A program made the position numbers and the translations under genes. This document shows positions 1,572 to 58,156 of a stretch of DNA of 64,000 bases, one piece after another. Under the pieces are notes generated by a model. It did no database searches, was not told the DNA's origin, and saw only the letters and a program-made list of their open reading frames with translations. The stretch lies in contig OZ025868.1 in NCBI GenBank assembly GCA_964019415.1, forward strand, positions 5,681,371 to 5,745,370, in the 5' to 3' direction. This DNA comes from Ianthella basta (Eukaryota; Porifera; Demospongiae; Verongiida; Ianthellidae). Each line of letters opens with the position of its first letter. Position 1 is the first letter of the stretch.

Positions 1572-4500
1572 CTACCTCCTCCACTGCAACATGGTGACAT
1601 AACAGATAACAGCAAGAGCCTGCAGAGAGAGGGAGTGAAGATAGAATTGTGCACTGACACACATCAATCTAGCTCAAAGCAGCATGCATCAAACTGAACT
1701 ACAGTTACTACTGGAATCCATCAACCACTAGTTACAGTTGTAGTGAATAAACTGGTTACAAAAGTCCAACTTCGACTGCATCAGCCACTAATCATGCTAC
1801 AAAGTATGATACACCAATGCTCAGTACATATTGTTGTATTATAATTATGATAAAGATTATCTGATTGCAGACTTTAAATTCGCTCTTTGGACTAGCTATC
1901 AATCACACCAAGTCACAAATATTCATTAGGAATTAACATATTGCCTGTCACAGGCTTCACCAGGCATACAAAACCAATGTGACCGGCAAAACGAAGCTGC
2001 CTAATTACTATAAAGTGTTACTATACTGACTATATATGATACTGATGTGAGTACTATAAAGTGACTTGGGGGATTCCGTCAACGAATGGCACATACGACT
2101 ATCAGAATTGAATCAGCATAAAGTGTAACAAACTCACCATGGTGGCTGCAGCAAGAGTAGGAAAAGGAGTACACTGGCAGAGAGCACTTACTCCAAATGA
2201 AGTGAAGTATGACATTAGCAGAGTAACAAGCTAAGTATAAATACCATTAAGGAATTGTTCAATGATTCATGAATGCAAGTGCAGTGAGGGAAACTATTTA
2301 CTTTGGCCAGTCACTCATCTGCTTGCTAAACACACCCAGCACATGCACTTCCTCTGCACCTATACATAGCTACGTAAGTAGCATTTCAATTCGAAAATAT
2401 ACTCACTAAAAGCACATTTGCCATCATCGATTCTAAAGCATGCGGTACGTTAGCATGCACATAGCAGTTGACGGAATTCAACAGGCTATATTGTATAATG
2501 TAGTAAATGCATTAATTAACAGGTGCTACAAGACAATGCAAAGCATGTATACATTTCACAAGATTTGGCTGGCAAATTCAAAGGATACAATTGGCGAGCA
2601 GACAACAACAAGTGCCCGATCTCGCACTCCTCTGCACCAGAGGATGGAGTTGAATAGGAGTAGGATGGCGAGCATAGAGGAAAGACACATCTGTAATATT
2701 ACGACTGTCATCAGGAGAATATAACTGTGGATTGGTAGGAAAGAGTTGAGTCATATACATGCAGTACACAATGGAACATTCTTTGTAGATCATCAGTATC
2801 GAATAATTGGGGTGAGTGTAAGAGATCCCACACCTACGAGAAGTATGACAATTTTGTCTGTGTATATATATATAAATCCCATTGCCATGGTAACATGCAT
2901 CTAAACGATGATTCTAAATCTCAGAGAAGCATTCCAATTGCTTCGCATGTGATTCTAAATTCCGCATATGTACATAGTGGGCAGAGTGCGCATGACAATA
3001 AATCCCATACACAAACGGTGCGGGCAGAGTGCACGTAAAGTTTATATGACGTCATCACAGCCCCTTTGCATCTGCTGTAATATGCCCATATCGCCAAAAA
3101 CTATTCCTTCATTTCTCATCAAATGGCTTCCCTACGAAGTAGGATTAAGGGTAGAATGAGTGTAACAAGAGAAAGAGTGTAACAAGAAAGTTCACGGGTG
3201 CCGAAGAGATCTTCCATTTAGGCTCCAACATCATCGATGGTTGCCAGTGAAACATAGATTGCCAAGAGGAGATAAAAGAATCGATTATGATTGGAGTAGA
3301 GAACAGTTTTGGGATCTATATTAATCAAATGCTGACCAATTGATGTCTGCAAAGATGTACACCACTCAGTACTCGGGTGCTTCAGCCTTCAAGCTTCATG
3401 CTCTAAATCCCAGATACCTCTTGGGCAGCATTTAACTACTACATAGATCATAATACATTTATATATATCATATACATATATATGCACTCTTATCAAGGAA
3501 ACCATGTTTTCTCAGGCTTATATCACCTATTTGTACATGGTTTCCTTGGTATTGATATATATTACATACTAGCAGAGAAGCCTGCCTTCAACATGCTTCT
3601 CTTTTACAGTGCCCAACCAACCTGTCCCCCAATGCCCTCAGCAACCATGTTACTGCTACAGCTAGTCTTACCCTGGCTATAAACAGAGTAATAGCTGGTG
3701 TGATGACTATTGTTTTAAATTCGACCATGGAACAACAGCCAGTCAAGTCTGGCAAAAGCCAGAAGTCAATGGGAACATTAATTAAAAAATGGTGGTTGTC
3801 CACAAAGGAAAGACGTGGAAATGGAAGGACAATCTCTGTGAACCACAAGACAGGCGACGTCAACCCCGCTATAACCTGACCCCCAGTGCCCCCAGCAACG
3901 GCAGTGAGTTTGACGCTGATGGAGCAAGAAGCGCACACGTGCATGGCGAACACACAGACAGACAACTTCAGCTTTATATATTAGATTATTATACTACTAT
4001 GCATATATATCCACAATTGAAAATATATCATATAATATGTCCATACGGCTTACCATATACCTCTTTTTGACCATGACAAAATGGCTGTCCTTGGCAAATA
4101 ACGTGCATATTCGCTGCAAAAAGCTGTGCAAGGTTAGCTACGTGAACGAAACGTTGGCTGCTTACCACCCGTACCCGCACTCAATGTTAAGTGATGAGAC
4201 TATGACTTCTCTCCCTCCAGCTTCAATAACATCCCCTGCCACCCCTGCCAGATGCCCATATCATCATTAGTCTAGATCTGTCTCAAAACAACAAATTGCA
4301 AAGGCTTATTTTTTTAATTAATTGAGCTACAACCTAATGATTGACATTCACTATGGCAGGACAAACTTGAGCATTGACTTACTTAGGGTTGGATTTGGAA
4401 ACATATTTACAGATTACAAAACCATCCACAAGTGCTCCGCTTCCAAGAAGAAGTGAAAGGATGCTTGACAGAATCATTGTCTAAAGAACATAGACAAGTT

Positions 4501-6389
4501 TGTGTAAGCCACATCATCATGAAACAAGTGCACAATGAGGGTGAGAGAGCATACAGAACATTGTCAATCTATATATATTGTTGACGGTGTATGTGATTAG
4601 AAAGCAGCACCCCATTCAGAGATCTGCTCAAACTGGCAGTTAGGTCTAACACCAAAGCCATCCTATAGCTATACATACCTTGCAAAAAGTGGCATATCAT
4701 GTAACAAATCATTTCTAGAATTCATCATGCAGTTTTTATATGTACCTGTCATAGCAAGAAGTAGATCTTTGAGCCTATATTTTGAGACATAATTATATTA
4801 TTCATGCAAATACCTTGCCAACCCCTTATATCGTAATCAGCTATATAAGTCAAAATCCTTGAGGACTATGTTGCTGTATTTAGAATAATTGTACATATCA
4901 TGCAACCAAAATCTGAGCTAAACTATGCAACTAAGTGGTATATATGTATGTATGTATTGTGACAAGGTGTAGAGTTTGCATAAACCTCTCCTACAGGCTT
5001 CAACTGTCAACAATACTAAAGGCAGTGCACAAATTCAAACAAAACCACTGAGTGCACAGTACGCTATAAGACTTGCATTAGCCTAACATTGCAAAACCAT
5101 CATGAACTTACTATGAAAAGGCCAAATACACATTTCCCTTCCTTGAAGCACCACCGATAAGGCTCTCTCATCTCTGGAAACTCTTCAGCAAGTGTAGAAG
5201 TGCTGGGTTCATTGGCTGCGTAAGCTGACATTTCGTGTAAGCTGCTATCAGAGAGGGGTACAGTAGGAACAGTCTTCCCCTGTAGACGGAGCCTCAGCTG
5301 AATGTTCTCAATGTTTTCCCTGAGATTCTGAATTTTCCTATTTGCTTCTGACTTCTGGGATACAAGGTCTGCCTTTCTCCTGTTCACATGTACAACCTCA
5401 CCGTCCTTACTCTCCAAGTCCTTCTGCATACGCCACATTGCAAGCTGCACATTGCTGTCCTGCTCTTGTATGGAATAGCTCTTCAACACAGTTTTCTCAA
5501 TTCGCTTCAGTTGTGGTAAAAGAGCACTACTTGTCGGACGCTTGCTTGCGTCGTCATCCAGGCATAGCTTGATCATGCCATGGAATAACTTCTTTTCATC
5601 TTCTGAAAATAGCTCTATGTATGGTGCACGTGTCTCCAACTGAGAGTATGCCAATGTGGTTTGTTTCTTATTTACCTCAACTTCAGACGGCTTTGGAATG
5701 ACTGGGGTGGGCCACTCATGTGTGAATGTCATAATGATGAGGTTGCCGTAGGAGAACACATCGAGCTTGTCATCATATTGTGGAGGGTAGCGCAATGCTT
5801 CAGGAGGCATGAACCCCGGTGTGCCCTTGATGGAGGAGCTACGTGTGAGTGAGGCTGCATCGATGGCCCTGGTCATACCGAAGTCGGTCAGCTTGGTCAA
5901 GTAGGTCACCTCGTTGACGAGGATGTTGTTGGGACTGAGGTCGTGATGCACCAACTTGGGGGAGTGGCTGTGAAGGTACACCAGACCCTGGGCCACCTGA
6001 CGGAGAATCACCACCTTGTTGATGAGGGGGAAATCTTCCTTTGGCGTCGACTCGAGTAGCGATCGGAGACTGGCGTCCATCTTCTCCAGCACCATGACAG
6101 GAGTGTGGCAAGGGTCGAAGTAGATCCCCAGAAACTGGACAATCTGAGGGTGTCTCAAAGCAGACCACGTGGCGCACTCTTTCTCAAACGCTGTGATGAA
6201 CGCTTGCTTCTCCTCCGCTGATAGTATCTCCTTGAAGATGTCGTGCATGAACTTCGCAGCGCAGACCGTTCCGTTCCATTCCACTTCCAAAACGGTCCCA
6301 AATGCACCCGCTCCGAGCTTCCGATCAGTCCTCCTAACGTCGTAGATCTTCAAAAGAGACTGCTGCAGCTCAACTTCGAATTTTGCCAT
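1572..6389 (-). CDS. Gene A: kinase-tetraspan fusion, type X, five exons
   Basis: Predicted 550-residue membrane-anchored protein kinase. Exons in transcription order are 6389-5112, 4480-4383, 2724-2589, 2230-2138 and 1619-1572. Donors are GTAAGT, GTAAGT, GTATCC and GTGAGT, all acceptors are AG, and phases 0/2/0/0 keep one frame. Exon 1 holds the kinase domain (about residues 20-300): glycine loop GAGAFG (26-31), lysine in CAAKF (K46), catalytic loop HHDLSPNN (148-155), DFG (169-171), GTPGFMPPEA (189-198). A coiled coil follows (about 303-370), then a Cys-rich end (WCFKEGKC). Exons 2-5 encode four hydrophobic segments with the loop WCRGVRDRA and the tail LQWRR. Catalytic residues are intact apart from His in place of the HRD Arg. 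The start is the ATG before the conserved LKIYDVRR. Gene B ends 140 bp upstream. Substrates are unknown; the kinase should face the cytosol. Confidence 0.85.
3482..3970 (+). other. Intron 2 segment of gene A with short inverted repeat and exon-like frame
   Basis: This part of gene A's second intron is absent from the right duplicate. An inverted repeat (ATCAAGGAAACCATGT near 3490 against ACATGGTTTCCTTGGT near 3535) forms a hairpin. After a possible acceptor (CTTTTACAG, ending near 3610) a plus-strand frame stays open to a stop near 3876 and would encode about 88 residues with a basic tail. I do not recognise it, and nothing upstream could splice to it with confidence. It may be a transposon remnant. 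Confidence 0.2.
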
Positions 6390-6529
6390 TTCCTGGTGAC
6401 CAGGTCACTATACTAACTACGTAGGAATTATATGAATTTTACTTATGTATTTATAATATAAATCCTTATATATAATTATGTGTGTTGTACTATTATAGTT
6501 GATCAATGTCTATATTATGCATGCATTGT

Positions 6530-9500
6530 TCATACCATCCACTGCATCACAATCAGGTAGCAGACTACAGCCAACCACTAATTATAAAGGGATTGAGAGA
6601 GAGAGAGAGAGAATAACTGCAATGTCTAGTTAGCTACAATCCACAAGCTCACAGTGATCAATAGGCTGTCAATTACTTGTAAAAATGATGTGGGATTAAG
6701 AATGCAACAGATATATATAGGATTCACAATTAGTATCTTCTACTGTACCTCATCTGCAATTGCTTTTTGCCAGTAGATATAGACTGATATCAAGTCAAAA
6801 AGAGAAGTGGCTAATGGAAATCAGCTATGATAGATTGGCCTTATGAGCATGCATAAGTAACAACAGATGATATGGCCGACTAGTAAAAATAGGGACAATG
6901 CCAAATAGTATTAGTCTGGCCAGCTAGACTGTTCCGATTACACCTAGGGTGCTTAGAAGAGAAGGGACGAGACTATACTGTCTAGAGCAATTTATTAGTT
7001 CACACCTTTATCAACCTATCAGATGTGTTGGCAACAAATTCATGGCAACGATACATAACCACAACACTTATGGCTACAGGTGTGAACTGTATGTAATTGG
7101 AGATGCGACACAGACAACTCAAAGATGAGAATTCGAACTAATTGCTATATATGCCCGCTAGACGGCCTTCCCATTGTTGCATCCAGTGCTTATTGGGCCC
7201 AGGACAGTGCTAGCCAGACTAAGATGGTACATGTACCTCACTCATCTACCAATTAACTCAGAACGTTGCTGTGCACTCATGAATGATTCTGCCCAATGTC
7301 ATTATCAATAGAAGAGTTAAATAGAGCTAGCTACAGAAGAGGAGGATTTGGAGGATGTGTGTGTGGTAGTATATAATCTGTTCAGAACAAAGGCTGAAGT
7401 GAACAACTAATTTGAATTGCATGAGCAACAGCTGCACAATTATGCTTTCAACTGCATGCACTGAAACACTTGTTTCGCTGAAACTATAGGGAGAGGGAAA
7501 TGTCAATGGTGTGGACTTCTAATGGACCATTGTACCAAGAAGCAGGTGATAGTCCCAGACTGTCTTTTGGGACGGCAGAGTCTGGACAAAATGGCAGTCA
7601 TCTATATGAGACTAGGGTTTGTCCATTACAATCACACTCACCATGAAAAGTATCGAGGATATTGAAGTGACAAATGCTGCTCCTGCAATTACTGAATTTC
7701 CATTTCTTGCAGTTATCGGCAAGAAAGAGGCACCAAACGTTGTGTAGAACGACACAGTTAGCATTATCACCTACAGTACATGGAGTTAAGGAAAGCTAGT
7801 TCAACAGCAGACAGAATTTACATATAATTATAATACAATTACAGTGCCTAAATGGCAGTATAAATGGAAAACATTATAGCACATCATACATAATAAATTC
7901 CATCTACTTTAGCACTAAATTGCAAATGGCGAGGGTTCAAGGATACAGTTGGTGAACAGATGAGGGTGAGTCCTTGACGTCTCTCTCCTCTGCACCAGAG
8001 CAAGAATCTGACAATCAGTGCAGTTGTGAGGACCACAGATAGAAGTGCCTGTACTGCAGCTGTGGCAATTGCACTTGTATCATGACAACTTGAGGTTGCA
8101 ATTGAAGAATAGGTGTAGCTGAATGCAAGGATTAAGTAAGACAAGTTTGGAGGAGTTAGAAAATCCACATGCATCTGTTCTTACAAGTAAATCTAAGGAA
8201 AATTCATTGAAGATTTGGTATTAGTGGACATATATATAGAAGTATTATAATAGTAATTCTTCATAGCAATGTGATGAGCCAGTGGTGTTACAGCCACACC
8301 CAAGTAGTTGAATGAAACCTGTGAAAGACCTGATAGACTACTATAATTGTACGTAAGTATTATTAAAGTTCATTGCACCTACAATACAACTAATGCATGG
8401 CTGGAAAGTTTGGCGAAGAAATTCATTTTGATGCATTAGTAGTTCTGAGCAATATTCACAAACATTTCCACCACCAAAATTTCTTAATTATATTATCACT
8501 GTGGCATAAGTCTTTACCAACCACCAAATGAAGTCCACCAAATGCCATAATTTGAGAAACCAGCAGAATAAATTCCAGCCAACGTTCCTGGCACATGTTA
8601 CTTTGTAATATAATAAGTAGTTAACTCATCCATAAAGATTTCAATCAATATACTATCAATATTACAATCAATAGCTAGTAAACATAGTAGTGGATGGTAA
8701 CTTACTTGAGTGGCTGTACATCTGTACTGATGAATAAACCGAGACTTGCAAGAACAAGCACATTGGCCACAATGCTTGTGATGAACACAGACTGTATTAA
8801 AACAAAAGACAACAATTCATACTTGGCCTGATTTACATAAATGATGACAGCAATACAATCTAAACTACGGTAACTCCGCACCATTTGCAATTGATTGCAT
8901 AAGTACTTACTGTAAACAAGCAACAGGCACACTTTCCCTTTTGGAAACAGCACTGGGTCAGTCCAGTAGGTGACTCTTCTGTTGCATCATCAGTCTCAGC
9001 AACTGAGCTAGTCTCAGGGACTAGGAGCGAATCTGTCAGAGCTGAAGTCCAATGGCCACTACTGGAGTCTTCAAGGACAGTGGAACGCTCAAGCTGTGAC
9101 TCTAGCTGGAGATGTTCCAGGTGCTGTTCAAGCCTGTGAACACTTCCCGACATTCTTGAGACATCTGTTTGCAGGGCTTGACTCTCTTCGTTCACTGTGG
9201 CAATCTCCGTCTCCTTCTTCTGCACTGCCTTCTGCATGCGCCACATTGCTAGCTGAATGTTGCTTGCTTCTGTCTCTGCTGCCTTGCTACCTTCCAATAA
9301 TGTCCCCTCAATCCTTTTCATTTCAGTTAATAGCATTGTACTGGTTGGACGATTCAACCCTTCATTCTCTAGGCAAAAGTGAATTATTCCTCTAAAAGCT
9401 GTAATTTCCTCCTTCAAAAACTGCTCGAAATGATGCTCACGTAGCTGAAACTCAGACACAATCTCAACCAGTGGCTCTCCTTCACCCATCAGCTGAGGTG

Positions 9501-10176
9501 TGGGCCACTGGTGGGTGATGACTGTGATGATCACATTGCCATATGCAAACACATCCAGTTTGTCGTCATAACGTAAGGGATAGCGAAGTGCTTCTGGTGC
9601 GACAAAACCCGGTGTGCCCTTGATGGAGGAGCTACGTGTGAGTGAGGCTGCATCGATGGCCCTGGTCATACCGAAGTCGGTCAGCTTGGTCAGGTAGGTC
9701 ACCTCGTTGACGAGGATGTTGTTGGGACTGAGGTCATGATGCACCAACTTGGGGGAGTGGCTGTGAAGGTACACCAGACCCTGGGCTACCTGACGGAGGA
9801 TCACCACCTTGTTGATGAGGGGGAAATCTTCCTTTGGCGTCGTCTCGAGTAGCGTTCGCAGACTGGCGTCCATCTTCTCCAGCACCATGACAGGAGTGTG
9901 GGAAGGGTCGAAGTAGATTCCCAGAAACTGGACAATTTGAGGATGTCTCAGCGCAGACCATGTGGCGCATTCTTTCTCAAACGCTGTGATGAACGCTTGC
10001 TTCTCCTCCGCTGATAGTATCTCCTTGAAGATGTCGTGCATGAACTTCGCAGCGCAGGTCGTTCCGATCCATTCCACTTCAAAGACTGTCCCAAATGCAC
10101 CGGATCCAAGCTTTCGATCAGTTCTTCTGATATCGTAGATCTTCAATGGAGCGAAAGGCTCAGCAACCGAAGCCAT
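6530..10176 (-). CDS. Gene B: kinase-tetraspan fusion, type Y, five exons
   Basis: Predicted 566-residue protein. Exons: 10176-8911, 8791-8706, 8118-7947, 7770-7642 and 6577-6530; the frame closes through phases 0/2/0/0. I start at the ATG before ASVAEPFAPLKIYD because it aligns with paralogue starts; an open frame runs 32 codons further upstream. Kinase marks: GSGAFG (24-29), K44, HHDLSPNN with D148 and N153, DFG (167-169), GTPGFVAPEA. The type Y coiled coil contains NIQLAMWRMQKAVQKKE and LQLESQLE. The juxtamembrane CCFQKGKCACCLFT has five Cys and could be palmitoylated. TM2 is followed by WCRGERRQGLTLICS, which is identical in other Y genes, and the tail is MQWMV. A Cys-containing segment between TM1 and TM2 (SSCHDTS) should be extracellular. 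Intron 4 carries a hAT-like MITE. Gene A starts 140 bp beyond its stop, so B and A form a tight Y-X pair. Confidence 0.85.
6912..7221. mobile_element. hAT-like MITE (TAGTCTGGC family), copy 1
   Basis: Terminal inverted repeats TAGTCTGGCCAGCTAGAC and its counterpart ending GCTAGCCAGACTA bound about 310 bp in intron 4 of gene B. Internal parts (AGTTCACACCTTT; an AGAAGGGACGGTCTAG-like run) match the copy at 19278-19570 and the half copy at 32026. It has no coding capacity. No target duplication is visible for this copy; the class is taken from the 8-bp duplication of copy 2. Confidence 0.65.
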
Positions 10177-34700: not shown

Positions 34701-35586
34701 AGACAGTCACCTCAATTCTGTTCATTTCAGCTAGTAGCATTGCACTGGTTGGACGATTCATCCCCTTGTTTTCCAAGCAAAGAGCGGTTATTCCTCGAAA
34801 AGCTTTAATCTCTTCTTTTGTAAACTGCTCAAAATGGTGCTCACGAAGTTGAATCTCAGACAATAGTTCAATTGTTGTCTCTTCTTCTCCCAGCTGAGGC
34901 ATAGCGGGTGTGGGCCACTGATGCGTGATGGCCATGATGATGAGGTTGCCGTAGGAGAACACATCGAGTTTGTCATCGTATTGTGGTGGGTGGCGCAATG
35001 CTTCAGGAGGCATGAACCCCGGCGTGCCCTTGATGGAGGAGCTACGTGTGAGTGAAGCTGCATCGATGGCCCTGGTCATACCGAAGTCGGTCAGCTTGGT
35101 CAGGTAGGTCACCTCGTTGACGAGGATGTTGTTGGGACTGAGGTCGTGATGCACCAACTTGGGGGAGTGGCTGTGAAGGTACACCAGACCCTGGGCCACC
35201 TGACGGAGGATCACCATCTTGTTGATGAGGGGAAAATCTTCCTTTGGTGTTGACTCCAGCAGTGAGCGCAGACTGGCGTCCATCTTCTCTAACACAAGGA
35301 CAGGGGTGTGGGAGGGATCGTAGTAGATCCCCAGAAACTGGACAATCTGAGGGTGTCTCAAAGCAGACCACGTGGCGCACTCTTTCTCAAACGCTGTGAT
35401 GAACGCTTGCTTCTCTTCCTCGGATAGTATTACCCTAAATACATCGTGCATGAACTTCGCAGCGCAGGCCGTTCCGTTCCATTCCACTTCGAAGACTGTC
35501 CCAAATGCACCCGCTCCGAGCTTTCGATCAGTTCTCCTTACGTCGTAGATCTTCAACGGAGCGGTAGGTATAACCACATTCGCCAT
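31716..35586 (-). CDS. Gene F: kinase-tetraspan fusion, type Y with an X-type patch
   Basis: Predicted 584-residue protein. Exons: 35586-34282, 34122-34031, 32915-32741, 32630-32496 and 31763-31716; exon 3 could instead start at 32921 (586 residues, same frame). Kinase marks: GAGAFG, K44, HHDLSPNN (D148), DFG (167-169). Helix C differs from all others (VFRVILSEEEKQ), as does YYDPSHTPVLVLEK. The coiled coil, CCLFT juxtamembrane and LQWME tail are type Y. However, GTPGFMPPEALRHPPQYD and VFSYGNLIIMAIT are type X where Y genes have GFVAPEA and VFAYGNVII. The switch back occurs at HQWPTP. The TM1-TM2 loop exon has several Cys (CSSCVSS). A receptor-like pseudogene begins 74 bp upstream in divergent orientation, so the promoter region is very short. 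Confidence 0.85.
32026..32130. mobile_element. hAT-like MITE (TAGTCTGGC family), half copy
   Basis: TAGTCTGGCTAGCTAGGC starts the left end, followed by an AGGAAGGGATGGTCTAG-like run and AGTTCACACCTAGCC as in the two longer copies. The right end is absent. It lies in intron 4 of gene F and is followed directly by the helicase-like fragment. Confidence 0.6.
32190..32375 (+). pseudogene. RecQ-like helicase fragment
   Basis: The frame encodes DYDVIVCLPTGYGNSLIFESVPYI. This matches the Q-motif-to-Walker A region of RecQ-type DNA helicases (xDVxVxLPTGxGKSLIFQxxP), with the Walker A Lys changed to Asn, so it would not bind ATP. No later helicase motif follows. Such fragments are common as transposon-carried or retroposed relics. 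It is intronic in gene F and on the opposite strand. Confidence 0.45.
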
Positions 35587-48700: not shown

Positions 48701-51700
48701 CAAGGAGTGTGGCAGATATTCGCTGGGCTCCTAATATTGTGTATTTACACTATTTATGGCGAACAAAGGCAAAGGATACAATTGGTGAACAAGTAATAAC
48801 AAGTACCTGATCTCTCACTCCTCTGCACCAGAGAACGGATAGAAATATGAACAGGAAGATGAGCAGAAAGGAAACAGAAATCTGAGAAATTACACCAATC
48901 ATCACAGCAACTGCTGAATCCCTGCACACAGTGATAGAAATGAGGATGGGTTACATAATTTATATGATGCAAGTCCATTACAGTTCCTAATGTCCAAATT
49001 AACAAGTACTATAATACATGCCTGTTTGAAGATTAGATTCACTACAGTAGCAAAGTGAAACGTACAAATTGGTGATTGTTAAACAGCTTCAGACTTTCGA
49101 GCCCTACATCTAGGATTGTCAATGTACAATCTATATAATCATACAAAACAGGACAGGATTATGTCTCTCTTGAACAATTTGCGTCCTTTTCTTTCAGCGA
49201 CCACCTGCCTGAAGTCAACAGGATAGACGTAGTCCCGTACCCAGACCCCACACGTCTGCCGGCCATTTAAGGTGACTTCATGTGTGGATGGGAAGAGATC
49301 TGGCACATTTCTTCATATAGAGAATTCGTTAATGCCCTGGAATGCTGGGACACAGTGAGGAATGTTAATTGCCAGCATACAGCTTGCTGGACTGTCAGAA
49401 TGGCAGAAAACAGGAAACCTACAGCATTGCAGGGGGTGATTTGTGAAGAGCTTCACAGACAAGGCTATGTTAACGTTAATTCTAAGCCAGTCTTGGCAAT
49501 TTTGGCGATCTGGTAAGGGAAATATGTTTTAGTCAGGAGCTTCAATAAGACGGCCATCTTCGTAGGTTGTCTTCACTGTTTAGCCATTGGTGGCCATGGC
49601 CCATGTTGTAGTACCTATAGGTCCTCTGACAAGCTTACTCTCCACTTTTGTCCATTATAAGAGAAGCATTGAACTCTTTCTGATGCCACAGGCGACTTCT
49701 GCACTCTCGGCCTGCTTCAAATGCTGGATTCTGCCTTACCTTTGCCAGGGGACTATTCTTGGAAATGTAGCAAGCGCTCCTACGTGACAATGCAATGGTC
49801 ACGTTCACATTTCTGCTCCCCTGACGTTTACTACCACACGCAAATGTTTGATTACTTGCATATCTGTGGTTGCGTGGGTGGAAGATCTCCCATAATTATT
49901 GGAAATGTGCCAGATCCTTTCTTGCCTCCAGATAACGTTGTAATATAAAAATGGAGGCGAGAAAGTGGTCTTGGTACGAGACTAGGATAGACTTGCTGCA
50001 ACAAGTTGTCCAAAGCTTCCATGTGCCTACATTTGGTTAGCATGTGTTGCGTGGTGCCCTTCTGCCCTGTCTGCCCTAGGTGTTTGGTGAGTTGCATAGT
50101 CTAAGCTAGTCTAGCGTAGCCGACCAGTTTCTCCTCTCCATTTTATTTGATGACATAATTGGCCGGGAAGAAAGGGTCTGGTGAACAGCCTATGCCACTT
50201 TTGTTCTAAGCCACCAGAACTTGATGGCTCATTAATATGCAGTTACCGTGGAGATAACGATATTCACAGCGATTAACGCGTTGTAACCAGGAAGAGTTAG
50301 GGCAACGAGTGGAGACCATTGGTGTGCGTAAGAAGCTTGCGCCGCTATTTTAAGGAAGATTTTACCGGCAGAAGCCCTATGGAAGACAGCCGACTCAGTA
50401 GACGATTGGACTCTCTCAGCTCACAATATTCATCTCCTTAGTCGATACAATCGGAGCGTACAGTATGGTGACAGACCTCTGATTATGGCAGCCACTGTAC
50501 AAGCAACCTCGACCAGAACAATGCTATTTCAGTCTTCAAAGATGAGCGCACAAGGCGATTACCATTTTCAGAGCGGTTACGTTTATGCACGTTTCTTGCT
50601 AACGGAAGTTACTAATTGGTTCCATGCTTAGAACAATAGTGGCAGACCCTTTCTCCCCGACCGATTACGTCATCAAATAAAAATGGAGGGGAGAAAGTGG
50701 TCGGCTACGCAAGACTATGTCTAAGCAGGAACGTTGCAACACTCGCCACACAGTGACATGACACAGTTAAGTAAAGAGCCGCAATTTAAAAGTCCACAAA
50801 TTCCAAGTTTCACTGTAATCTCGATGCAAAAGAATTACAAGCTAATATTACACAGGTCAAGTAACGCTTAGTATTCAACACGTGTGGGAAATATGAAGCC
50901 ATAGACTTCTACATCTCCAATACAATGTATGCGGATGTATAGCACTTGCCTCAGATGTTTTGTGCCCCCAAATGGAGCTGTACATTCGTCATATTGCACA
51001 CTAAGAGGTTTTACTGCTATTAGATATAACAATTATAATATCAAAAGTAGAAATGAACTTGAGCATGCTAATTTAACTCACGGGTTAAAGTTTAAGGGGT
51101 CCTGGACAAAAATCTCCACAAGAGCTGCTGCTCCGAGCAGAAATGAGAGGACACTTGAAAGCATCATTGTCTGCAGTAAAACCACAAACATTAAAGAAAC
51201 TAGTGCAGATAAAACAGAGCACATAAAACTGTGAAATATGGTTTTCCCTTCATTATATACAGCAAATTAGTGCTGTGCTACAGTTCCCACTTGTGGCTAT
51301 TAAAGGTTTTTGCCAAGGTAATTAGTAGCTCACACTGATTGTTGGGAAACTCAAAGTATTGGCCATGCATTAACTCACTCTCAGTATTCTACTGTGTAAT
51401 AACTAGCAGCTATTTTCCTAAAATACGATGGCATTTAGTGCATACAGAGACTTTAAATAGGGGGGATGGGGGGGTGTATCGTGGAAGAAATGTTTGAAGG
51501 AACAATAATAACTTTTTCCACCCTATGACATCAACAATATGGAAGACAGCGTAAACTGTCATACATACACAATGGAACTGTTAAAATACAGTGACAAAGC
51601 TAGAAAAAACAATGTTTAGTGTCTTTGAACTACTGCAAAATGGATATATTTTCAATTTACTGCCCCACAAATCCTGGCAGGGGGTTTGTACACTCCCAAC

Positions 51701-53130
51701 AACCCCCCCCCCCCCCCCATGCATACAGGCCTGGAAAGCAGAAGATGCATAAGCAAAAATATTACAGTTAACTAAACACTATAGCCGCCTGCATTTGAGA
51801 CATACATCATGTGATGTTTATGAATACAGCTGAAACATATTCTGTACCTGTTACTTACCGTGAACAAGACACATACACATCTTCCATATTTGAAGCACCA
51901 CTGATAAGGTCTTCCTGTCTCTGAAACGTCCTCCGGTGATGAAGTGACACTGGGTTCATTAGCTGTGGGAGCTGACATTACTTGCAAGCCACTATCAGGT
52001 ATGGGCACACTGGGAACAGTCTTCCCCTGTAGAGTAAGCTTCAGATTAACGTTCCCAATGCGCTCCTTGACATCTATAACCTTCTGATCCACCTCCAACT
52101 TCTGGCTTACTAGCTCAGCCTTCCTGTTGTTTACCCGCACAACCTCACTGTCCTTACTCTCCAAGTCCTTCTGCATGCGCCACATTGCAAGCTGCACATT
52201 GCTGTCCTGCTCTTCAATGGAATAGCTCTTTAGCACTGCTTTCTCTGTTCTTTTCATTTGAGACAAAAGTGCATTACATGTAGGGCGTTTGGTAGCATCG
52301 TCATCTAAGCACAACTTAATCACACCTTGGAATAGCTTCTTTTCATTCTCTGAAAACAGTTCAAGGTAGGGTGCACGAGTGTCCAGCTGAGAGTATGGTA
52401 TCACATCCTGTGTCTCCTCTCCCTCAACTTCAGCAGGCCTTGGAATGACTGGTGTGGGCCACTCATGTGTGAGGGTCATAATGATGAGGTTGCCGTAGGA
52501 GAACACATCGAGCTTGTCATCGTAGTGTAGTGGGTAGCGTAATGCTTCAGGAGGCATGAACCCCGGTGTACCCTTGATGGAGGAGCTACGTGTGAGTGAG
52601 GCTGCATCGATGGCCCTGGTCATACCGAAGTCGGTCAGCTTGGTCAGATAGGTCACCTCGTTGACGAGGATGTTGTTGGGAGTGAGGTCGTGATGCACCA
52701 ACTTGGGGGAGTGGCTGTGAAGATACACCAGACCCTGGGCCACCTGACGGAGGATCACCACCTTGTTGATGAGAGAAAGATTGTCCTTCGGTGTGGACTC
52801 GAGTAGCGATCGCAGACTGGCGTCCATCTTCTCCAGCACCATGACAGGAGTGTGGGAGGGGTCGAAGTAGATCCCCAGAAACTGGACAATCTGAGGATGT
52901 CTCAAAGCAGACCACGTGGCGCACTCTTTCTCAAAGGCTGTGATGAACGCTTGCTTCTCCTCCGGTGATAGTATCTCCTTGAAGATGTCGTGCATGAACT
53001 TCGCAGCGCAGGCCGTCCCGTTCCATTCCACTTCGAAGACTGTCCCAAATGCACCCGCTCCGAGTCTCCGATCAGTCCTTCTGATGTCGTAGATCTTCAA
53101 CGGAGCGAGCTGAGCTTCCAAATCGGCCAT
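39715..53130 (-). CDS. Gene H: kinase-tetraspan fusion, type X, expanded by transposons
   Basis: Predicted 550-residue protein. Exons: 53130-51859, 51170-51082, 48921-48780, 46190-46098 and 39771-39715; donors GTAAGT, GTGAGT, GTATCC, GTGAGT. I start at the ATG before ADLEAQLAPLKIYD; the frame is open 13 codons further. Kinase marks: GAGAFG, K44, HHDLTPNN (D148, N153), DFG (167-169), GTPGFMPPEA; PKDNLSLINK replaces the usual PKEDFPLINK. The type X coiled coil (NVQLAMWRMQKDLESKD) leads to WCFKYGRCVCVLFT, identical to gene C. TM1 TMMLSSVLSFLLGAAALVE; the TM2 exon ends WCRGVRDQVLVITCSPI; TM3 LIFLVVLYFTLFGVGA. The last exon has three extra codons (LQWRRVAS), unique in the array. Intron 4 is 6.3 kb because of a Ty3/gypsy insertion; introns 2 and 3 hold hAT-like and composite repeats. 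Confidence 0.8.
40030..41165 (+). other. Unrecognised coding-like relic in intron 4 of gene H
   Basis: Three neighbouring plus-strand frames look more protein-like than chance: an acidic stretch near 40100-40190 (STEDTDDTDNDSGEEVQEEY), MNKIAAGDKYLEFIDESLEW near 40750, and a Leu-rich stretch from 40850. Their frames differ and stops intervene. I cannot name the family. They may be the ruins of one transposon or gene, or may be unrelated. Confidence 0.2.
41368..41570 (+). repeat. 5' LTR of the Ty3/gypsy element
   Basis: It starts TGTGCTGTTTGATC and ends GGGCAACATTACA; it matches 45582-45788 along its whole length. Shared core: GTAGTAAGTTCTGTAGTCC and GTGTTCGCTCCTTCGTCCAT. It begins with TG and ends with CA, as LTRs usually do. 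Promoter elements are not clear. Confidence 0.9.
41597..42508 (+). CDS. gag: gag polyprotein of the Ty3/gypsy element
   Basis: The 303-codon frame has a capsid-like region (FSAYVERVELFFQANGI near residue 18; later YIAKLRRLASKC) and two zinc knuckles near residues 215-250 of the CX2CX4HX4C type (CYRCGRSGHLPNDC, CHTCEKKGHIALVC). These bind RNA during packaging. I use the ATG at 41597, after the primer-binding site; the frame is also open upstream within the LTR. Gag looks intact. The pol frame begins directly after its stop, shifted by -1. Confidence 0.8.
   Translation: MAAFRRIQEFNAAAESFSAYVERVELFFQANGIREEKQVPVFLSSIGSATYGTLCDLLAPSNPKDKSFEQIVDTLKGHFEPKPLVIAERFHFHRRNQAPGESITEYIAKLRRLASKCDFRAYLEEALRDRLVCGLLSEPIQRALLSEVDLTLKRAFQVAQGMEAAHKNAQSLKASKLPVHRLDQPTRVTGSRSFSSFKSAGDSTGGKTCYRCGRSGHLPNDCRFKDVTCHTCEKKGHIALVCRSARRDAQRVSRGQGPGRNAHYVDTQQLLEDETQMIMNSSTKLAHPPPPHMKWCRSEMESR
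42511..43140 (+). pseudogene. pol: pol, part 1: protease and start of reverse transcriptase
   Basis: EIDTGAAVSIIS at the start is the aspartic protease active site (D-T-G). LLGRDWL marks the protease end, and EWAAPIAPVLKKDGTIR the first RT motif. The frame then leaves the RT coding phase near 43090 and stops at 43140, although RT coding continues from 43109 in another frame. The frame lies -1 relative to gag, which fits translation by frameshifting before decay. Confidence 0.8.
43109..44026 (+). pseudogene. pol: pol, part 2: reverse transcriptase and RNase H
   Basis: The RT palm motifs are present: KLDLSAAYQQ, LPFGVASAPAVFQR, and the catalytic YLDD in VICYLDDILITG. A thumb (FLGLINYYGKFLPN) and a Ty3-type RNase H (LAGDASAYGVGAVISH; EKEALSLIYRVRKFHQCLYG) follow. 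The frame ends at an in-frame TAA (44024-44026) inside the conserved RNase H end, where relatives read on in the same phase; coding resumes at once at 44027. Confidence 0.85.
44027..45108 (+). pseudogene. pol: pol, part 3: RNase H end and integrase zinc/core domains
   Basis: The frame first continues RNase H and the connection (GNADGLSRLP), then shifts near 44475 within the integrase zinc finger. In the new phase HHGHPGIVRM and CSTCQAV give the HHCC finger. The core has Asp in LLVVIDSHSKWPE, Asp in IVTDNRPQF (Gly of the usual DNGxQF is Arg) and Glu in NGAAEWLVQ, so the DDE triad is present. Another shift follows before 45108. Confidence 0.8.
45102..45554 (+). pseudogene. pol: pol, part 4: integrase C-terminal region
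   Basis: The frame continues integrase with ARVRSKQADQKAYYD and a GPY/F-like module (KKLGPLSYSIRV). A variable tail ends PPNRWAF, a few bases before the purine tract. No chromodomain is seen. It is out of phase with part 3 by one shift. Confidence 0.7.
45582..45788 (+). repeat. 3' LTR of the Ty3/gypsy element
   Basis: It starts TGTGGTGTTTGATG and ends GGGCAACATTACA. Compared with the 5' LTR it has scattered substitutions (for example CATGCGTATAC against CCTGCATATAC) and a 4-base length difference near the start (ACTATTAATTTG against ACTATTTG). The purine tract lies immediately upstream. Confidence 0.9.
46985..47650. repeat. Composite repeat, copy 2 (minus orientation)
   Basis: A full foldback (46985-47300; arms AAAAATTCCTTTAGAATTTA and its mirror) encloses a second palindrome around GCTAGCTAAACATTTGGGTC. 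It is joined to a segment (47384-47650) that matches 29125-29400 in reverse, including the inverted form of GAAGGGCACATTTCC. It lies in intron 3 of gene H and has no coding capacity. Confidence 0.65.
47675..48610. repeat. Composite repeat, copy 3 (minus orientation)
   Basis: A third foldback (47675-48010) is followed by matches to all other parts of copy 1 in reverse, up to AATACATCAAAAGAAGCCTA near 48505 and ACGCCATTTTG near 48600. A poly-G tract interrupts it (48227-48241). Copies 2 and 3 lie in tandem, which suggests local duplication or nested insertion. Confidence 0.65.
49229..49984. mobile_element. hAT-like element with 8-bp target duplication
   Basis: Ends TAGTCCCGTACCCAGACC and the mirror of TAGTCTCGTACCAAGACC bound 756 bp, and GGATAGAC lies on both sides (49221-49228 and 49985-49992). 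An internal plus-strand frame (49280-49516; GWEEIWHISSYREFVNALEC) is not recognised and may be a transposase fragment. It lies in intron 2 of gene H. Confidence 0.7.
50107..50718. mobile_element. hAT-like element, about 80-bp inverted ends, 8-bp duplication
   Basis: The left end TAGTCTAGCGTAGCCGACCA continues into TTTCTCCTCTCCATTTTATT, mirrored on the right by TAGTCTTGCGTAGCCGACCA and TTTCTCCCCTCCATTTTTAT. GTCTAAGC flanks both sides (50099-50106 and 50719-50726). It has no coding capacity. It lies 115 bp from the previous element and shares its CTCCATTTTTAT subterminal motif. Confidence 0.75.
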
Positions 53131-53316
53131 ATTGTGCGAACAGGCTAGGATGCGCATATGCACGTGCACGTGGCCAGGAAGAATTCTGACCCGCGCGGAC
53201 TAATTCTAAATAATTATCACAGTAGTGGTGAGCCTGCATGACCACGGTACGTCCATCAAGAGCCAGGTAGGCACACCATACAACTATAAGATATATTGTT
53301 GTATCAATGGATAGCG

Positions 53317-56300
53317 TCATTCCATCCACTGCAGCTCAGTCAAGTAGCAGATTAGAGCCAGTCCCTACAAAATGTGACAAAATGAGTGCTGTGTAAAGTA
53401 TGTACGTAGCTATCTATGCAGTCTTGCCTAGTGTGTTCATATAATTATAGTGCACTTGCATTGTGTGTATTTGTGTGTGTAAAATTAAGATGATTTAACT
53501 AATCAAGCATGTTTGACATGTGCTCTGTGTGTACATGTACACTCATGGCATTGGCATAAATAACTGGGGTAGCAGCATGATCTTAGCTAGATATGTGACC
53601 ACTTTTAACTATGGAGAGAGAGTGCTTTAATTACAACCTGTAGTCCAATACAAGCAAACTTACCATGAAAAATACTGCAAACATGGCCAATAGTCCTACT
53701 ACTTCAACTTTGTATACCACAAATGAGAGAACTCCACAAGTTGTGCAAAATGACACAGTCACTACTATCACCTAATAATGGAGTCAAGGACAGTCACGTA
53801 GTTGTACAAGGATCGAGTATAACTAGTATACCTGATTATCAAATTGGTATATACACAACAAATTCCAATTGCAAGCACTAGCACTGTAGCCTAAAGATTA
53901 AGGATACAACTGCTGAACAGATGAGGGTGAGTCCTTGACGTCTCTCTCCTCTGCACCACAGCAAGAACCTGACAATCAGTGCAGTTGTGAGGACCACAGA
54001 CAGAAGTGCCTGTACTGCAGCAATAGAAATCACAGTTTCACGAAAAAGACCAACGACTGCCCCTACGCCCGGGACCCACTGGCAGCTACATGAAATAAGA
54101 GAGAGAGAATAGGCAAGGACTTTAGAAGAGCCAAATGCATAGATTTCACATTCATGCACCATGCAGGACAGTTTGTTACATAATAATGGTTTGAAGAGAC
54201 TACCATGGCATTAAAAATTGTACATATCCTTGTTTTGCATATGAAGCAGTACTGGACGTACAACTACTTATAATGCAGCCTCATACCCTATTTATGCTAT
54301 TTATGTGCCAAAAAATTGTCCAAAGTTAAGTTGCAATAGGCTCTCCAAGCCTACAAAAGCACACAACACCAGAGAAATGTTCTAGCGTGGCTATAGTTGT
54401 GCCCAAAGTGCAAGTTGCATATTGTTGCTGCATCCTGCCCAGCTTATTACACCAATTGATTGATGCTGCCGCCCAGTCCCCCTGACCTGCAGCAACTAGC
54501 CATGGTGGTGTTTCTCCGTTCATCACCTAGCACCAACACAGTATTTGCAATCGTGGTGGTTCCCTCTGCATGCCAATCAATGCTGCATGGTGCCCGGTAG
54601 CCCTGATCTTTGGCAGCTTGGGCTAATGGTGTTCTTCCTGCCATCAACTAGTGCAAACACTGTACCTGCACTCGTGGTGGTTACCCTCAGCAACTTGCAC
54701 TGGTGTGCGCGTGGTTCCTTGAAGTGGCCAAGATGTCCCTGCTGACAACGGTGGCTCACTCTACTGATCCACATGTTCTCGAGTGTTCTCCCTCTCTGCA
54801 GGACCCGTCTTGCCTGAAGGCTTCCTGCCATGACCCAAAGGTTGTGGAGCAGTTCCAAACAGCCGTTGACCAGTGCAGGGCCGAGCCACACCCCCCTAAG
54901 AAGTCTCAGGTGCTTGCCAAGTGTAAGAAGCTGGCGAGAGAGAAGAAGGTACAGGATTGGGAGAACCATCTCAGCCAGCTCACTGTCCAGAATGGTGTTT
55001 TGGACATCCTCCCTCTTGGTGCAGAAGACCACCGCTGGCAGCGACTTCTCACAGGAATGCCAGCAGGTCAGCTGCCCTTTGTACTGAGGGCAAGCTGCGA
55101 CTGTCTACCATGCCCAAGCTCCCTGGTCGGATGGGGCTACTCACTCAACCAGAAGTACCCTCTGTGTAATGGTCCTCCCTGCAACATGCATGCAGTACAT
55201 GTTGAACTGCTGCCCAACAGCCCTGACAGATGGCAGGTACACATGGCGCCATGACATGGTGCTCACCGCCCTACTCCCATTCTTTCAGAGGTTTAATTCA
55301 ACAGCCTCCGTCTATGCAGACCTGCCAGACCACAGGGCATGTGAATCTCCTCCAGCAACCATTCCCCCCACCATCATTGGGACCATATTGCTTGGCCGGA
55401 TTTCTTTGTTGTGGATGGTAAGCGTGCTACCATGTTGGAACTCACTGTGCCCTGGAACAACCTCACTAGTATCAAGAATGCTAGAGCACAGAAGCAGGGG
55501 AAGACCAACTACCAGCTTTGGGCTTCGGACCTGTCTGCCCAGAGTTACCAAGTTCAACTGCTGACAATTGAGATTGGCTGCCTAGGCCGCTACATGCACG
55601 AGGCCTATACGGCTCTAAGACATGCTGCCCCAAGAGCAAAGCCTCTGACAGACATAAAGCTCTGACTGACGCGGCAAAAGCAGCCATCTCTGGGAACAAC
55701 ACTATCTTTTCAGCTCACAAATCTCCCTAGAACTTGGGTGCCAGGTGTCCAAATGGAGACTGAGCCTGAATTGATCACCAAATATGCCCACCAATCAATA
55801 TTCTTTTATGTTATGTTTAATGTAATATACACATGTAGCACCACAATCCCCTTTCATAATCCACGTATTGCTTGCCTATCCCCCAAATTATATCCACATA
55901 CAGTCCTTTACTTCCCCAAACTTATATTTTTCCCACTTTGTCCCCTCTAGTTTTTTCTCCCCCTTACCTTGCCAGGGCATTCCCCAACAATGCAGTTTCT
56001 ACTGCATAGCAACTTGTAACCCTGTGTCCAAGGTTTAAACCCTTTTCTATTACATCATTATCACTTATTGTATTCCCCATGATGTGGTTCCCCTAACGGG
56101 GGGGCCATGATTGAAAGCGTCTTGTGAACCAAGTCATCGAACTGCTGGGTGTTATCCCACTGCTTCCTGTATATCTTCGGACCAGAGGTAGTGTGGTTGC
56201 CTTTTCTGCAACTTTCAAAGGCAGAAGATGCTTATGCTCTGCGCAGAGCAACGTTTGGAAGCCCTTGGTACTTACGGCGTGAATGAGGCAAATAAAATGG

Positions 56301-58156
56301 CCGACAATATGAATTCTTTATCCACAATACTTCACTCAATACACAATTATATCAAAGCAAGCACAGATATACTGCCTGTGGCACCCCCAAAAATTGAGGC
56401 TTCATAGCTATATTGGTGTATGGAATACACATGGTTTGGGCAAGAGAACATGATGTCACAAACTTAGCTGTCTTGTGCAAAGGTTAAAATTTCGCACTTG
56501 GTATTGAGTTAGCTAAGAAAGCTAGGTAGAGACGTACTGAGAAGCTAACAAAACTAAGCAAGAACAAAAATATGAGTGATTCGTATTACTTTCAAGGGAA
56601 AACGGCATTCATACATCACCACATACATGATGCACAACAAATAGCTACCAGAGTACCGCCAAGGCCCATGGTCACTTACCTTCTAGTAATAGGAAAGATA
56701 TTTGGAATGATATACGGGTTACTGCTTACACAGAGGATTGCAAGAGCAAGCATAATTGAAATGCTGCTCATAAGCATGATGGACTGTAACACAAAAGAAT
56801 ATATTATATATGTAAAGTTTATGCTCAATCAACATCATGACTGTACGTCATTCTAAACACAGCTCCATTACACACCATACAAATACTTACTGTGAACAAG
56901 CAACAGGCACACTTTCCCCACTGGAAACAGCACTGGCATGGATTTCTTCTACCAACAGTCTCAGCTGCTAAACTCATCTCATGGACTAGGAGTGAGTCGG
57001 TCTCAGACCCTGTATGAGTTTCATTCAGGTACACTCTACTGCTGGTGACATCAAACATAGCAGAGCTCTCCAGCTGCGACTCTAGCTGGATACGTCCCAG
57101 GTGCTGTTCTAGTCTTTGGAAATTTTCAGAAATGGTAGAAATTTCAGTTTGAAGGCTTTGGTTCTCAATATTCACTTTAGCAATCTCAGACTCCTTCTTC
57201 TGTACTGCCCTCTGCATGCGCCACAAGGCAAGCTGGATGTTGCTTATTTCTGTCTCTGGTCTGATATCAGCTTCCAAGACGGTCGCCTCGATCTTCTTCA
57301 TTTCAGCCAAAAGCATTGCACTGCTTGGACGCATACTGCCTTCACTCTCCAGGCAGAGTTTTGTTATCCCCCCAAAGGCTTTCAATTCTTCTTTTGAAAA
57401 CTGCTCGAAATGATGCTCACGTAGCTGAAACTCAGATACAATCTCAACCAGTGCCTCTCCTTCACCCATCAGCTGAGGTGTGGGCCACTGGTGGGTGATG
57501 ACTGCGATGATCACATTGCCGTATGCAAACACATCCAGCTTGTCGTCATAACGTGGGGGATAGCGAAGTGCTTCTGGAGCGACAAACCCCGGTGTGCCCT
57601 TGATGGAGGAGCTACGTGTGAGTGAGGCTGCATCGATGGCCCTGGTCATACCAAAGTCGGTCAGCTTGGTCAGGTAGGTCACCTCGTTGACGAGGATGTT
57701 GTTGGGAGTGAGGTCGTGATGCACCAACTTGGGGGAGTGGCTGTGAAGGTACACCAGACCCTGGGCCACCTGACGGAGGATCACCACCTTGTTGATGAGG
57801 GGAAAATCTTCCTTTGGTGTTGACTGAAGCAGTGCGCGCAGACTGGCATCCATCTTCTCCAGCACCATGACAGGAGTGTGGGATGGGTCGAAGTAGATCC
57901 CCAGAAACTGGACAATCTGAGGGTGTCTCAAAGCAGACCACGTGGCGCACTCTTTCTCAAGCGCTGTGATGAACGCCTGCTTCTCCTCCGCTGATAGTAT
58001 CTCCTTGAAGATGTCGTGCATGAACTTCGCAGCGCAGGCCGTTCCGTTCCATTCCACTTCGAATACCGTCCCAAATGCGCCCGATCCGAGATTCCGATCA
58101 GTCTTTCTGATGTCGTAGATCTTCAACGGAGCGAGATTGGCTTCGAAATCAGCCAT
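53317..58156 (-). CDS. Gene I: kinase-tetraspan fusion, type Y, five exons
   Basis: Predicted 567-residue protein. Exons: 58156-56891, 56783-56680, 54085-53908, 53771-53664 and 53364-53317, phases 0/2/0/0; intron 4's donor is GTAAGT. I start at the ATG before ADFEANLAPLKIYD; seven further codons are open upstream. Kinase marks: GSGAFG, K44, HHDLTPNN (D148, N153), DFG (167-169), GTPGFVAPEA. Helix C has TALEKE where others have TAFEKE. The type Y coiled coil (NIQLALWRMQRAVQKKE) leads to CCFQWGKCACCLFT. TM1 SIMLMSSISIMLALAIL; TM2 exon VQALLSVVLTTALIVRFLLW then CRGERRQ; TM3 VIVVTVSFCTTCGVL; tail ELQWME, with a Glu inside TM4. Intron 2 holds a LINE relic. Gene H begins 186 bp beyond its stop. Confidence 0.85.
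54440..54720 (-). pseudogene. Possible ankyrin-repeat relics
   Basis: Two imperfect copies of a unit of about 120 bp read on the minus strand as GETPPWLVAAGQGDW and GRTPLAQAAKDQGYRA, followed by ANTVLVLGDER. The G-x-TPL-x-x-AA pattern is that of ankyrin repeats. Shifts separate the copies. They sit at the 5' end of the LINE relic in intron 2 of gene I and may have been captured. Confidence 0.3.
54703..56110 (+). pseudogene. LINE-type ORF2 C-terminal relic with 3' flank
   Basis: The frame from 54703 encodes MPAGQLPFVLRASCDCLPCP followed by YSLNQKYPLCNGPPC, the region after RT seen in a group of aquatic-animal LINEs (W..L..MPAGQLSF, DCLPTP.NL, CPLC). Frames at 55230-55660 continue it with broken reading (RYTWRHDMV-like, NYQLWASDLSAQ, LEIGCLGRYMHEAY). 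No RT domain remains. The AT-rich 55.7-56.1 kb stretch looks like its 3' untranslated part. Family name by recall, not by search. Confidence 0.5.

What the first reader, a model, noticed from the sequence alone, without database searches (positions are those of the whole stretch)
1572..58156. Unusual kinase-tetraspan fusion family with a fixed five-exon design
Eight complete genes join a cytosolic kinase, a coiled coil and four membrane segments. The membrane part is easy to miss because it sits in exons of 83-178 nt and one of only 48 nt. In all eight genes exon phases 0/2/0/0 close the frame to a stop, which chance would not do. Known four-pass families (CD20-like, claudin, tetraspanin) are not kinase-linked as far as I know. 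The arrangement suggests a sensor that works without a large ectodomain, for example by lipid or partner binding in the membrane.
Basis: partly seen in the sequence, partly recalled or inferred. Interest (0 to 1): 0.92.

Follow-up and report, generated by a model that had tools for sequence, protein, structure and literature searches.

The report
Paired four-pass membrane kinases in sponge
A sponge chromosome carries a tandem array of about 36 copies, some broken, of genes that join a protein kinase to a short four-pass membrane anchor of no recognised family, in two alternating types, a combination that may be a new kind of membrane signalling protein.

Summary
All eight genes (minus strand) splice in silico into five exons, phases 0/2/0/0, one terminal stop. 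The last exon (48 nt; 57 in one) matches in all eight and in none of ten shuffled strands. Exons 2-5 are under purifying selection (dN/dS 0.54, bootstrap 0.44-0.65). Intron 3 looks U12-type in 8 of 8; U12 and U6atac RNA genes exist.

The window is part of a 240-kb array. 34 of 36 kinase exons are followed by exactly one membrane exon 3, of their own class, before the next kinase exon. Classes A and B alternate, with 140-432 bp from B stop to A start in the window. The catalytic half is homogenised between classes; C-lobe, coil and tail are class-specific.

The membrane part matches no Pfam or PDB family and, as far as two searches reach, is confined to this array, one small contig and one stray exon. 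Both relatives fetched from elsewhere have an NHL exon instead.

Best reading: a four-pass TKL-like kinase family, possibly acting as A/B pairs. No transcript was available; sensing is unproven.

The parts
5112..6389 (-). gene 6404 (class A) exon 1: kinase + helix + start of TM1
4383..4480 (-). gene 6404 exon 2 (TM1)
2589..2724 (-). gene 6404 exon 3 (TM2 + cytosolic loop)
2231..2588 (-). gene 6404 intron 3, U12-type
2138..2230 (-). gene 6404 exon 4 (TM3, start of TM4)
1572..1619 (-). gene 6404 exon 5 (end of TM4, stop)
8911..10176 (-). gene 10290 (class B) exon 1
8706..8791 (-). gene 10290 exon 2
7947..8118 (-). gene 10290 exon 3
7771..7946 (-). gene 10290 intron 3, U12-type
7642..7770 (-). 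gene 10290 exon 4
6530..6577 (-). gene 10290 exon 5
15719..16984 (-). gene 16996 (class A) exon 1
15393..15475 (-). gene 16996 exon 2
13168..13318 (-). gene 16996 exon 3
12131..13167 (-). gene 16996 intron 3, U12-type
12038..12130 (-). gene 16996 exon 4
11372..11419 (-). gene 16996 exon 5
22746..24002 (-). gene 24056 (class B) exon 1
22528..22631 (-). gene 24056 exon 2
18758..18926 (-). gene 24056 exon 3
18639..18757 (-). gene 24056 intron 3, U12-type
18531..18638 (-). gene 24056 exon 4
17417..17464 (-). gene 24056 exon 5
30200..31474 (-). gene 31498 (class A) exon 1
28641..28795 (-). gene 31498 exon 2
28120..28252 (-). gene 31498 exon 3
28006..28119 (-). gene 31498 intron 3, U12-type (weakest branch point, 2 mismatches; acceptor chosen by frame)
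27910..28005 (-). gene 31498 exon 4 (acceptor chosen to keep the frame)
24462..24509 (-). gene 31498 exon 5
34282..35586 (-). gene 35589 (class B) exon 1
34031..34122 (-). gene 35589 exon 2
32741..32921 (-). gene 35589 exon 3
32631..32740 (-). gene 35589 intron 3, U12-type
32496..32630 (-). gene 35589 exon 4
31716..31763 (-). gene 35589 exon 5
51859..53130 (-). gene 53199 (class A) exon 1
51082..51170 (-). gene 53199 exon 2
48780..48921 (-). gene 53199 exon 3
46191..48779 (-). gene 53199 intron 3, U12-type
46098..46190 (-). gene 53199 exon 4
39715..39771 (-). gene 53199 exon 5 (57 nt; intron 4 holds a retroelement)
56891..58156 (-). gene 58198 (class B) exon 1
56680..56783 (-). gene 58198 exon 2
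53908..54085 (-). gene 58198 exon 3
53772..53907 (-). gene 58198 intron 3, U12-type
53664..53771 (-). gene 58198 exon 4
53317..53364 (-). gene 58198 exon 5
61089..62625 (-). stretch with exons 3-5 of a ninth gene (class A), kinase exon right of the window; outer limit at 62625 is an open frame, not a mapped exon edge

Best explanation
A family of receptor-like kinases in a demosponge. Each gene encodes a cytosolic kinase closest to the TKL group, a long helix (coil), a Cys/Lys-rich juxtamembrane stretch and a four-pass membrane domain with both ends in the cytosol. The kinase-coil exon belongs to a larger local kinase family; the two relatives examined carry an NHL exon in the C-terminal position that is filled here by the four-pass exons, two of which are joined across a U12-type intron. 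The array grew by duplication of a B-A gene pair. The catalytic half is kept alike by gene conversion, while C-lobe, coil and membrane domain stay distinct for A and B. Most likely mechanism (inferred): A and B subunits are made together and pair through coil and membrane bundle, holding near-identical catalytic domains at a membrane, where assembly or membrane state controls trans-phosphorylation. Shown by computation: gene design, selection, U12 signals, alternation, homogenisation. Inferred: expression, topology, pairing, stimulus and substrate. The confidence below is for the four-pass membrane-anchored kinase family, not for A/B pairing (about 0.35).
For: Frame, phases and terminal exon in 8 of 8. 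dN/dS 0.54 (0.44-0.65) for exons 2-5. Kinase exon and one class-matched exon 3 alternate in 34 of 36. U12 donor in intron 3 of 8 of 8, mean branch-point mismatch 0.62 against 2.5-2.9 in introns 1, 2, 4; GTATCC at 23 of 23 distinct exon-3 ends held. Positive charges in juxtamembrane and TM2-TM3 loops, few in the other loops, 8 of 8. Class order changes at 31 of 35 steps, shuffled maximum 29 in 100,000. 13 of 16 class-A loci analysed have a class-B last exon within 1.5 kb upstream, 11 of them at 140-432 bp. Between-class synonymous difference is like within-class through codon 180 and higher after about 210; the C-half tree groups by class, the N-half tree by origin. NHL exon downstream of the kinase-coil exon in 2 of 2 relatives fetched. 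AlphaFold on exon 1: kinase fold plus helix 313-369.
Against: No transcript, protein or localisation data. Four separate hydropathy peaks in only 4 of 8 genes. The coil is weak in class A (60-319 of 1000 shuffles reach it, 4 of 4). Alternation follows from duplicating a two-gene unit and need not mean that the proteins pair; it is broken at three places (A-A twice, A-A-A once). Adjacent A and B are no more alike than distant ones. Two class-B kinase copies have no exon 3 found, and several copies are broken. The branch that groups the other contigs' rows in the N-half tree has support 35/96 and its bootstrap had not settled. The spliced protein was not folded, so the bundle has no model. No spliced homologue was found.
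Confidence: 0.8

Rival explanations
1. The four membrane segments only anchor the kinase at one membrane and sense nothing; the signal comes from elsewhere through the C-lobe or coil.
For: Extracellular loops are short; loop 1 is variable without dN/dS over 1. The invariant columns lie mostly in the juxtamembrane stretch, the TM2 end with the WCR loop, and the last exon.
Against: A single segment would do for an anchor; polar columns in TM2 and TM4 are invariant; the two relatives examined carry an NHL exon in this position.
Confidence: 0.4
2. Exons 2-5 are a separate small membrane-protein gene lying downstream of each kinase and duplicated with it.
For: No RNA evidence excludes it. The exon-1 frame runs past its donor to a stop in every gene, in gene 24056 only after reading through intron 1 and exon 2. 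Exon 2 has a Met at residue 2 or 3 in 6 of 8 genes.
Against: Exon 1 ends in a Cys-rich hydrophobic stretch that continues segment 1 of exon 2; phase and frame fit in 8 of 8; two genes have no Met in exon 2; one class-matched exon 3 per kinase exon in 34 of 36.
Confidence: 0.06
3. A and B are independent paralogues; alternation is only the mark of how the array was duplicated.
For: Duplication of a two-gene unit gives alternation without function; adjacent A-B genes are no more alike than distant ones in the catalytic half (0.156 and 0.156); no block is shared by all four B-A spacers.
Against: Rows from other contigs fall into both classes, and B-A spacers are short: 4 of 4 at 140-432 bp in the window.
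Confidence: 0.5

Closest known systems
GPCR-TKL/K of choanoflagellates and GPCR-TK of choanoflagellates and sponges (PMC12716839; passages seen)
   Same: A multi-pass membrane domain fused to a TKL or tyrosine kinase in holozoans; GPCR-TKL/K is lineage-specific and expanded.
   Different: Seven segments with a C-terminal kinase; here the kinase is N-terminal and four segments close the protein.
Kinase-coil-NHL genes of the same sponge (contig C11, two loci examined)
   Same: 47% identical kinase-coil first exon in both and a phase-0 join after it by my reading.
   Different: NHL-repeat exon downstream; no membrane exons found by homology on C11.
TKL kinases (CTR1, TAK1, IRAK4; group membership recalled)
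   Same: CTR1 is the best PDB sequence match (1.2e-26), then WNK, TAK1, TAO2 and IRAK4 close together; general kinase fold.
   Different: HHD in place of HRD in the catalytic loop; four-pass tail.
CD20-like (MS4A), MARVEL, claudin, tetraspanin four-pass families
   Same: Four segments with both ends inside (topology here by charge).
   Different: Not among the Pfam matches of 8 of 8 tails at E up to 10; not kinase-linked as far as I recall.

Membership tests
Protein kinase, TKL group | Kinase domain with Lys, catalytic Asp and DFG | tested here: met
   PF00069 and PF07714 in 4 of 4 proteins scanned, of the eight; AAK, HxD and DFG invariant or nearly so in an alignment of 45 sequences
Protein kinase, TKL group | Closest relatives are TKL kinases | tested here: inconclusive
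   CTR1 is best, but WNK and TAO2 (not TKL, recalled) score about as high as TAK1 and IRAK4; no kinome tree was made
CD20-like (PF04103) | Profile match of the membrane part | tested here: not met
   No match in 8 of 8 tails at E up to 10; two weak genome matches, 17.9 and 17.5 bits against a cut-off of 27.9, outside the array
Tetraspanin, MARVEL, claudin | Profile match of the membrane part | tested here: not met
   None listed for 8 of 8 tails at E up to 10; HMMER filters drop most weak matches, and no profile-profile comparison was run
GPCR-kinase fusions | Seven segments N-terminal to the kinase | tested here: not met
   Order is kinase then four segments
U12-type intron | Donor RTATCCTT and branch point TTCCTTRAC near the acceptor (consensus recalled) | tested here: met
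   8 of 8 donors; branch point 0-1 mismatch to TCCTTRAC in 7 of 8, 2 in one; U12 and U6atac genes over cut-off. The 8-mer alone is not enriched in the genome: 5217 against 5961 for the reversed pattern
Four-pass topology, both ends inside | Experimental topology or a trained predictor | tested here: inconclusive
   Charges fit in 8 of 8, four hydropathy peaks in 4 of 8; no topology predictor and no fold of the spliced protein

The most novel reading that the evidence does not exclude
An obligate two-subunit receptor-kinase system: B and A made together from tight gene pairs, both dependent on one U12-type intron for the full four-pass form, with interchangeable catalytic halves kept alike by conversion and class-specific membrane bundles that make the pair a sensor without an ectodomain.
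Probability: 0.25. Interest if true: 0.8.

Novelty: new variant of a known kind. Interest (0 to 1): 0.62.

Why it matters
Multi-pass kinases are rare in animals as far as I recall, and this order (kinase first, four-pass domain last) did not turn up in the ten literature searches made here. The array suggests how a kinase module can change its C-terminal partner in an early animal lineage, and offers up to 16 natural A/B pairs (20 class-A and 16 class-B copies, some broken) with a homogenised catalytic half and divergent tails for testing what the tails do. It also places a U12-type intron end in each copy examined (23 of 23 distinct exon-3 ends held), which makes the array a natural test set for minor splicing.

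Tried and rejected
Spliced homologues elsewhere: a search with the tail of one spliced protein found two proteins of the same long contig (1,663,616 bases) as the window's own hits, both gene calls ending just after exon 1; the proteins seen from that collection are gene calls on unspliced DNA. An exon-3 profile found one 110-residue protein on a 1352-base contig (P0121), so an exon-3 relative exists in another record, but its link to a kinase there is unknown.

CD20 origin: no genome match over cut-off. Separate-gene reading judged unlikely on frame, hydrophobic continuity and one-to-one order. Diversifying selection on loop 1: not found; loop 2 in class B gave 1.37 over about 12 codons, too few to use. 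Conversion between neighbours: no neighbour effect. The stray exon-3 copy on C2 has GTATTC at the donor. Shared regulatory elements in the four B-A spacers: no block common to all four by eye; two of them (after genes 58198 and 24056) share about their first 45-60 bases.

Literature, ten searches (three of them returned no paper): no paper on such a fusion was seen in the listings; only open-licence papers are held.

Choices by hand: classes were typed from identities, frames and the better of two query scores. dN/dS used a Nei-Gojobori script of my own. One search used 29 of 30 kinase loci. One search used those 29, 21 rows taken as other species by contig (not verified) and 3 outgroup rows; the 21 were picked by hand from 120 listed proteins. 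One search reports 26 of 30 loci; for 4 the script gave no start. In one search the coil of gene 53199 was taken at the wrong place; one search repeats it. Mitochondrial genes other than cox1 were named by eye.

Full report
What was checked. The window is 64 kb of a 16.6-Mb contig (C1) of a 209-Mb genome. Its small contig C96 has a cox1 match with 9 in-frame TGA and, beside frames that I read as usual animal mitochondrial genes, an ATP9-like frame (L053:4877-5113). ATP9 in an animal mitochondrial genome is, from established knowledge, a sponge feature. The species was not identified.

Gene design. Eight kinase frames lie on the minus strand. Downstream of each, four small exons join in phases 0/2/0/0 and end in one stop in 8 of 8. 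Exon 2 completes membrane segment 1; exon 3 holds segment 2 and a loop WCRxxRxxxLxxxCS; exon 4 holds segment 3 and the start of segment 4; exon 5 ends segment 4 with LQW or MQW and a few residues. A scan for exon 5 found ten copies on the minus strand, none on the plus strand and none in ten shuffled strands. Gene 31498 needed a different acceptor from my first choice.

Selection and topology. dN/dS for exons 2-5 is 0.54 within classes (bootstrap 0.44-0.65) and 0.44 between classes (0.26-0.62); for codons 20-215 of the kinase it is 0.13. Segment 4 has 0.20-0.38. Loop 1 has 0.54 (0.19-0.80) within and 0.74 (0.34-1.51) between classes. The juxtamembrane stretch and the TM2-TM3 loop carry 2-4 positive residues each in 8 of 8; loop 1 carries 0-2 and loop 2 carries 0-1. 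This favours both ends in the cytosol. Hydropathy gives separate peaks for all four segments in 4 of 8 genes.

U12-type intron. Intron 3 starts GTATCCTT in 8 of 8. Its last 45 nt hold a branch-point-like TCCTTRAC with 0 or 1 mismatch in 7 and 2 mismatches in 1; the other introns average 2.5-2.9 mismatches and random intron pieces 3.0. In the DNA held at that time, 23 of 23 distinct exon-3 copies that fitted a protein motif end at GTATCC. Across the genome the 8-mer itself is not enriched (5217 against 5961 for the reversed pattern). The genome has U12 and U6atac RNA genes over Rfam's cut-offs. I take this as strong support that exons 3 and 4 are joined.

The array. The kinase search scored 97 of 785 candidates. 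It lists 36 kinase exons, full or partial, at 5.569-5.808 Mb of C1, one on contig C79, and 60 relatives at 43-53% identity elsewhere, so numbers elsewhere are lower bounds. Searches with two tails found membrane exons only in this array, on C79, and as one lone exon on C2, apart from a chance-level match on C12 (E 1.1); short exons limit their reach. 34 of 36 kinase exons have exactly one exon 3 before the next kinase exon, of the same class in 34 of 34; two class-B kinase exons have none. Class order changes at 31 of 35 steps; 100,000 shuffles reached at most 29. In the window the spacer from B stop to A start is 186, 241, 432 and 140 bp, against 4128, 459 and 1195 bp from A to B. Of 16 class-A loci analysed, 13 have a B-type last exon within 1.5 kb upstream (11 at 140-432 bp, one each at 877 and 1427), one has an A-type exon and 2 have none; of 10 class-B loci, 3 have an A-type and one a B-type exon.

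Concerted evolution. In 29 loci, synonymous differences between A and B are like those within classes through codon 180, being lowest around the catalytic loop (0.03-0.07 at codons 121-180). Codons 181-210 are mixed (0.11, 0.26 and 0.28 for A-A, B-B and A-B). Beyond, A-B is 0.36-0.73 against 0.14-0.33 within classes. Trees agree: the C-terminal half joins B with 7 rows of other contigs (96/93) and A with 14 (91/93), whereas in the N-terminal half all 21 rows of other contigs go together (1 change, in 100% of 200 bootstrap trees, but branch support 35/96 and an unsettled bootstrap). If those rows are other species, as I think but did not verify, both classes are older than the split and the catalytic half has been homogenised in each lineage. 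There was no stronger likeness between neighbours (0.156 and 0.156).

What the parts are. The kinase matches Pfam kinase models in 4 of 4 scanned; its best PDB sequence match is the TKL kinase CTR1. Its catalytic loop reads HHD; that this makes it a non-RD kinase, as in RIPK2, is recalled. AlphaFold on exon 1 gave a kinase fold and a helix at 313-369 (mean pLDDT 73, helix mostly 55-80), with general kinase matches. Heptad spacing in the helix is significant in class B (0-5 of 1000 shuffles, 4 of 4) but not in class A (60-319 of 1000, 4 of 4). The tails (alignment) have no convincing Pfam match in 8 of 8 (best E 0.068, one member) and the profile has no PDB match at E up to 10. Of the 120 relatives listed (of 1101), 44 carry the Cys/Lys juxtamembrane motif by my pattern, which missed a few true cases.

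Sister architecture. Two C11 relatives were fetched. Each has the kinase-coil first exon and, downstream on the same strand, a frame of NHL repeats (E 6e-26 and 4e-29) with an acceptor that I read as phase 0. I infer that the same module carries either an NHL domain or the four-pass domain. Two loci out of many do not show that all relatives do so.

How it may work. Kinase, helix and bundle in one chain would place the active site at a membrane with almost no ectodomain. The constant catalytic half with class-specific rest, and the alternating tight pairs, suggest A/B hetero-assembly; this is inference. Alternatives are a plain anchor and independent paralogues. A sensor role is possible but untested.

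Known things compared. GPCR-kinase fusions (PMC12716839, passages seen) are the nearest kind: multi-pass domain plus kinase, but seven segments and a C-terminal kinase. No paper with the order found here was seen in ten searches of an open-licence library (listed in Tried and rejected).

Noticed in passing
window 41501-45108 (+): A retroelement (gag, reverse transcriptase, RNase H and integrase matches in separate frames; Ty3-like by recall) lies inside intron 4 of gene 53199, on the opposite strand.
   Followed up: partly
window 58858-58811 (-): An orphan class-B-like last exon (GLALLCYLAVLQWIE stop) 654 bp upstream of the start of gene 58198, between it and the last exon of the ninth gene.
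   Followed up: partly
window 20556-21389: Long low-complexity frames on both strands (Arg/Glu-rich and Pro/Leu-rich repeats) inside intron 2 of gene 24056.
   Followed up: no
window 54652-55254 (+): An open frame of 200 codons inside intron 2 of gene 58198, no Pfam match at E up to 0.01.
   Followed up: no
G000 contig C2:6712051-6712212 (L049): A lone class-A exon 3 copy, 78% identical over 54 residues, whose donor reads GTATTC, far from the array.
   Followed up: partly
G000 C1:5602535 and 5620853: Two class-B kinase copies with the same score and match range; exon matches near 5596694/5614477 and 5596286/5614069 also score alike: probably a recent duplication of about 18 kb.
   Followed up: no
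G000 contig C11: Many related kinase-coil genes (most of the 60 listed outside the array and C79); the two fetched are followed by NHL-repeat frames.
   Followed up: partly
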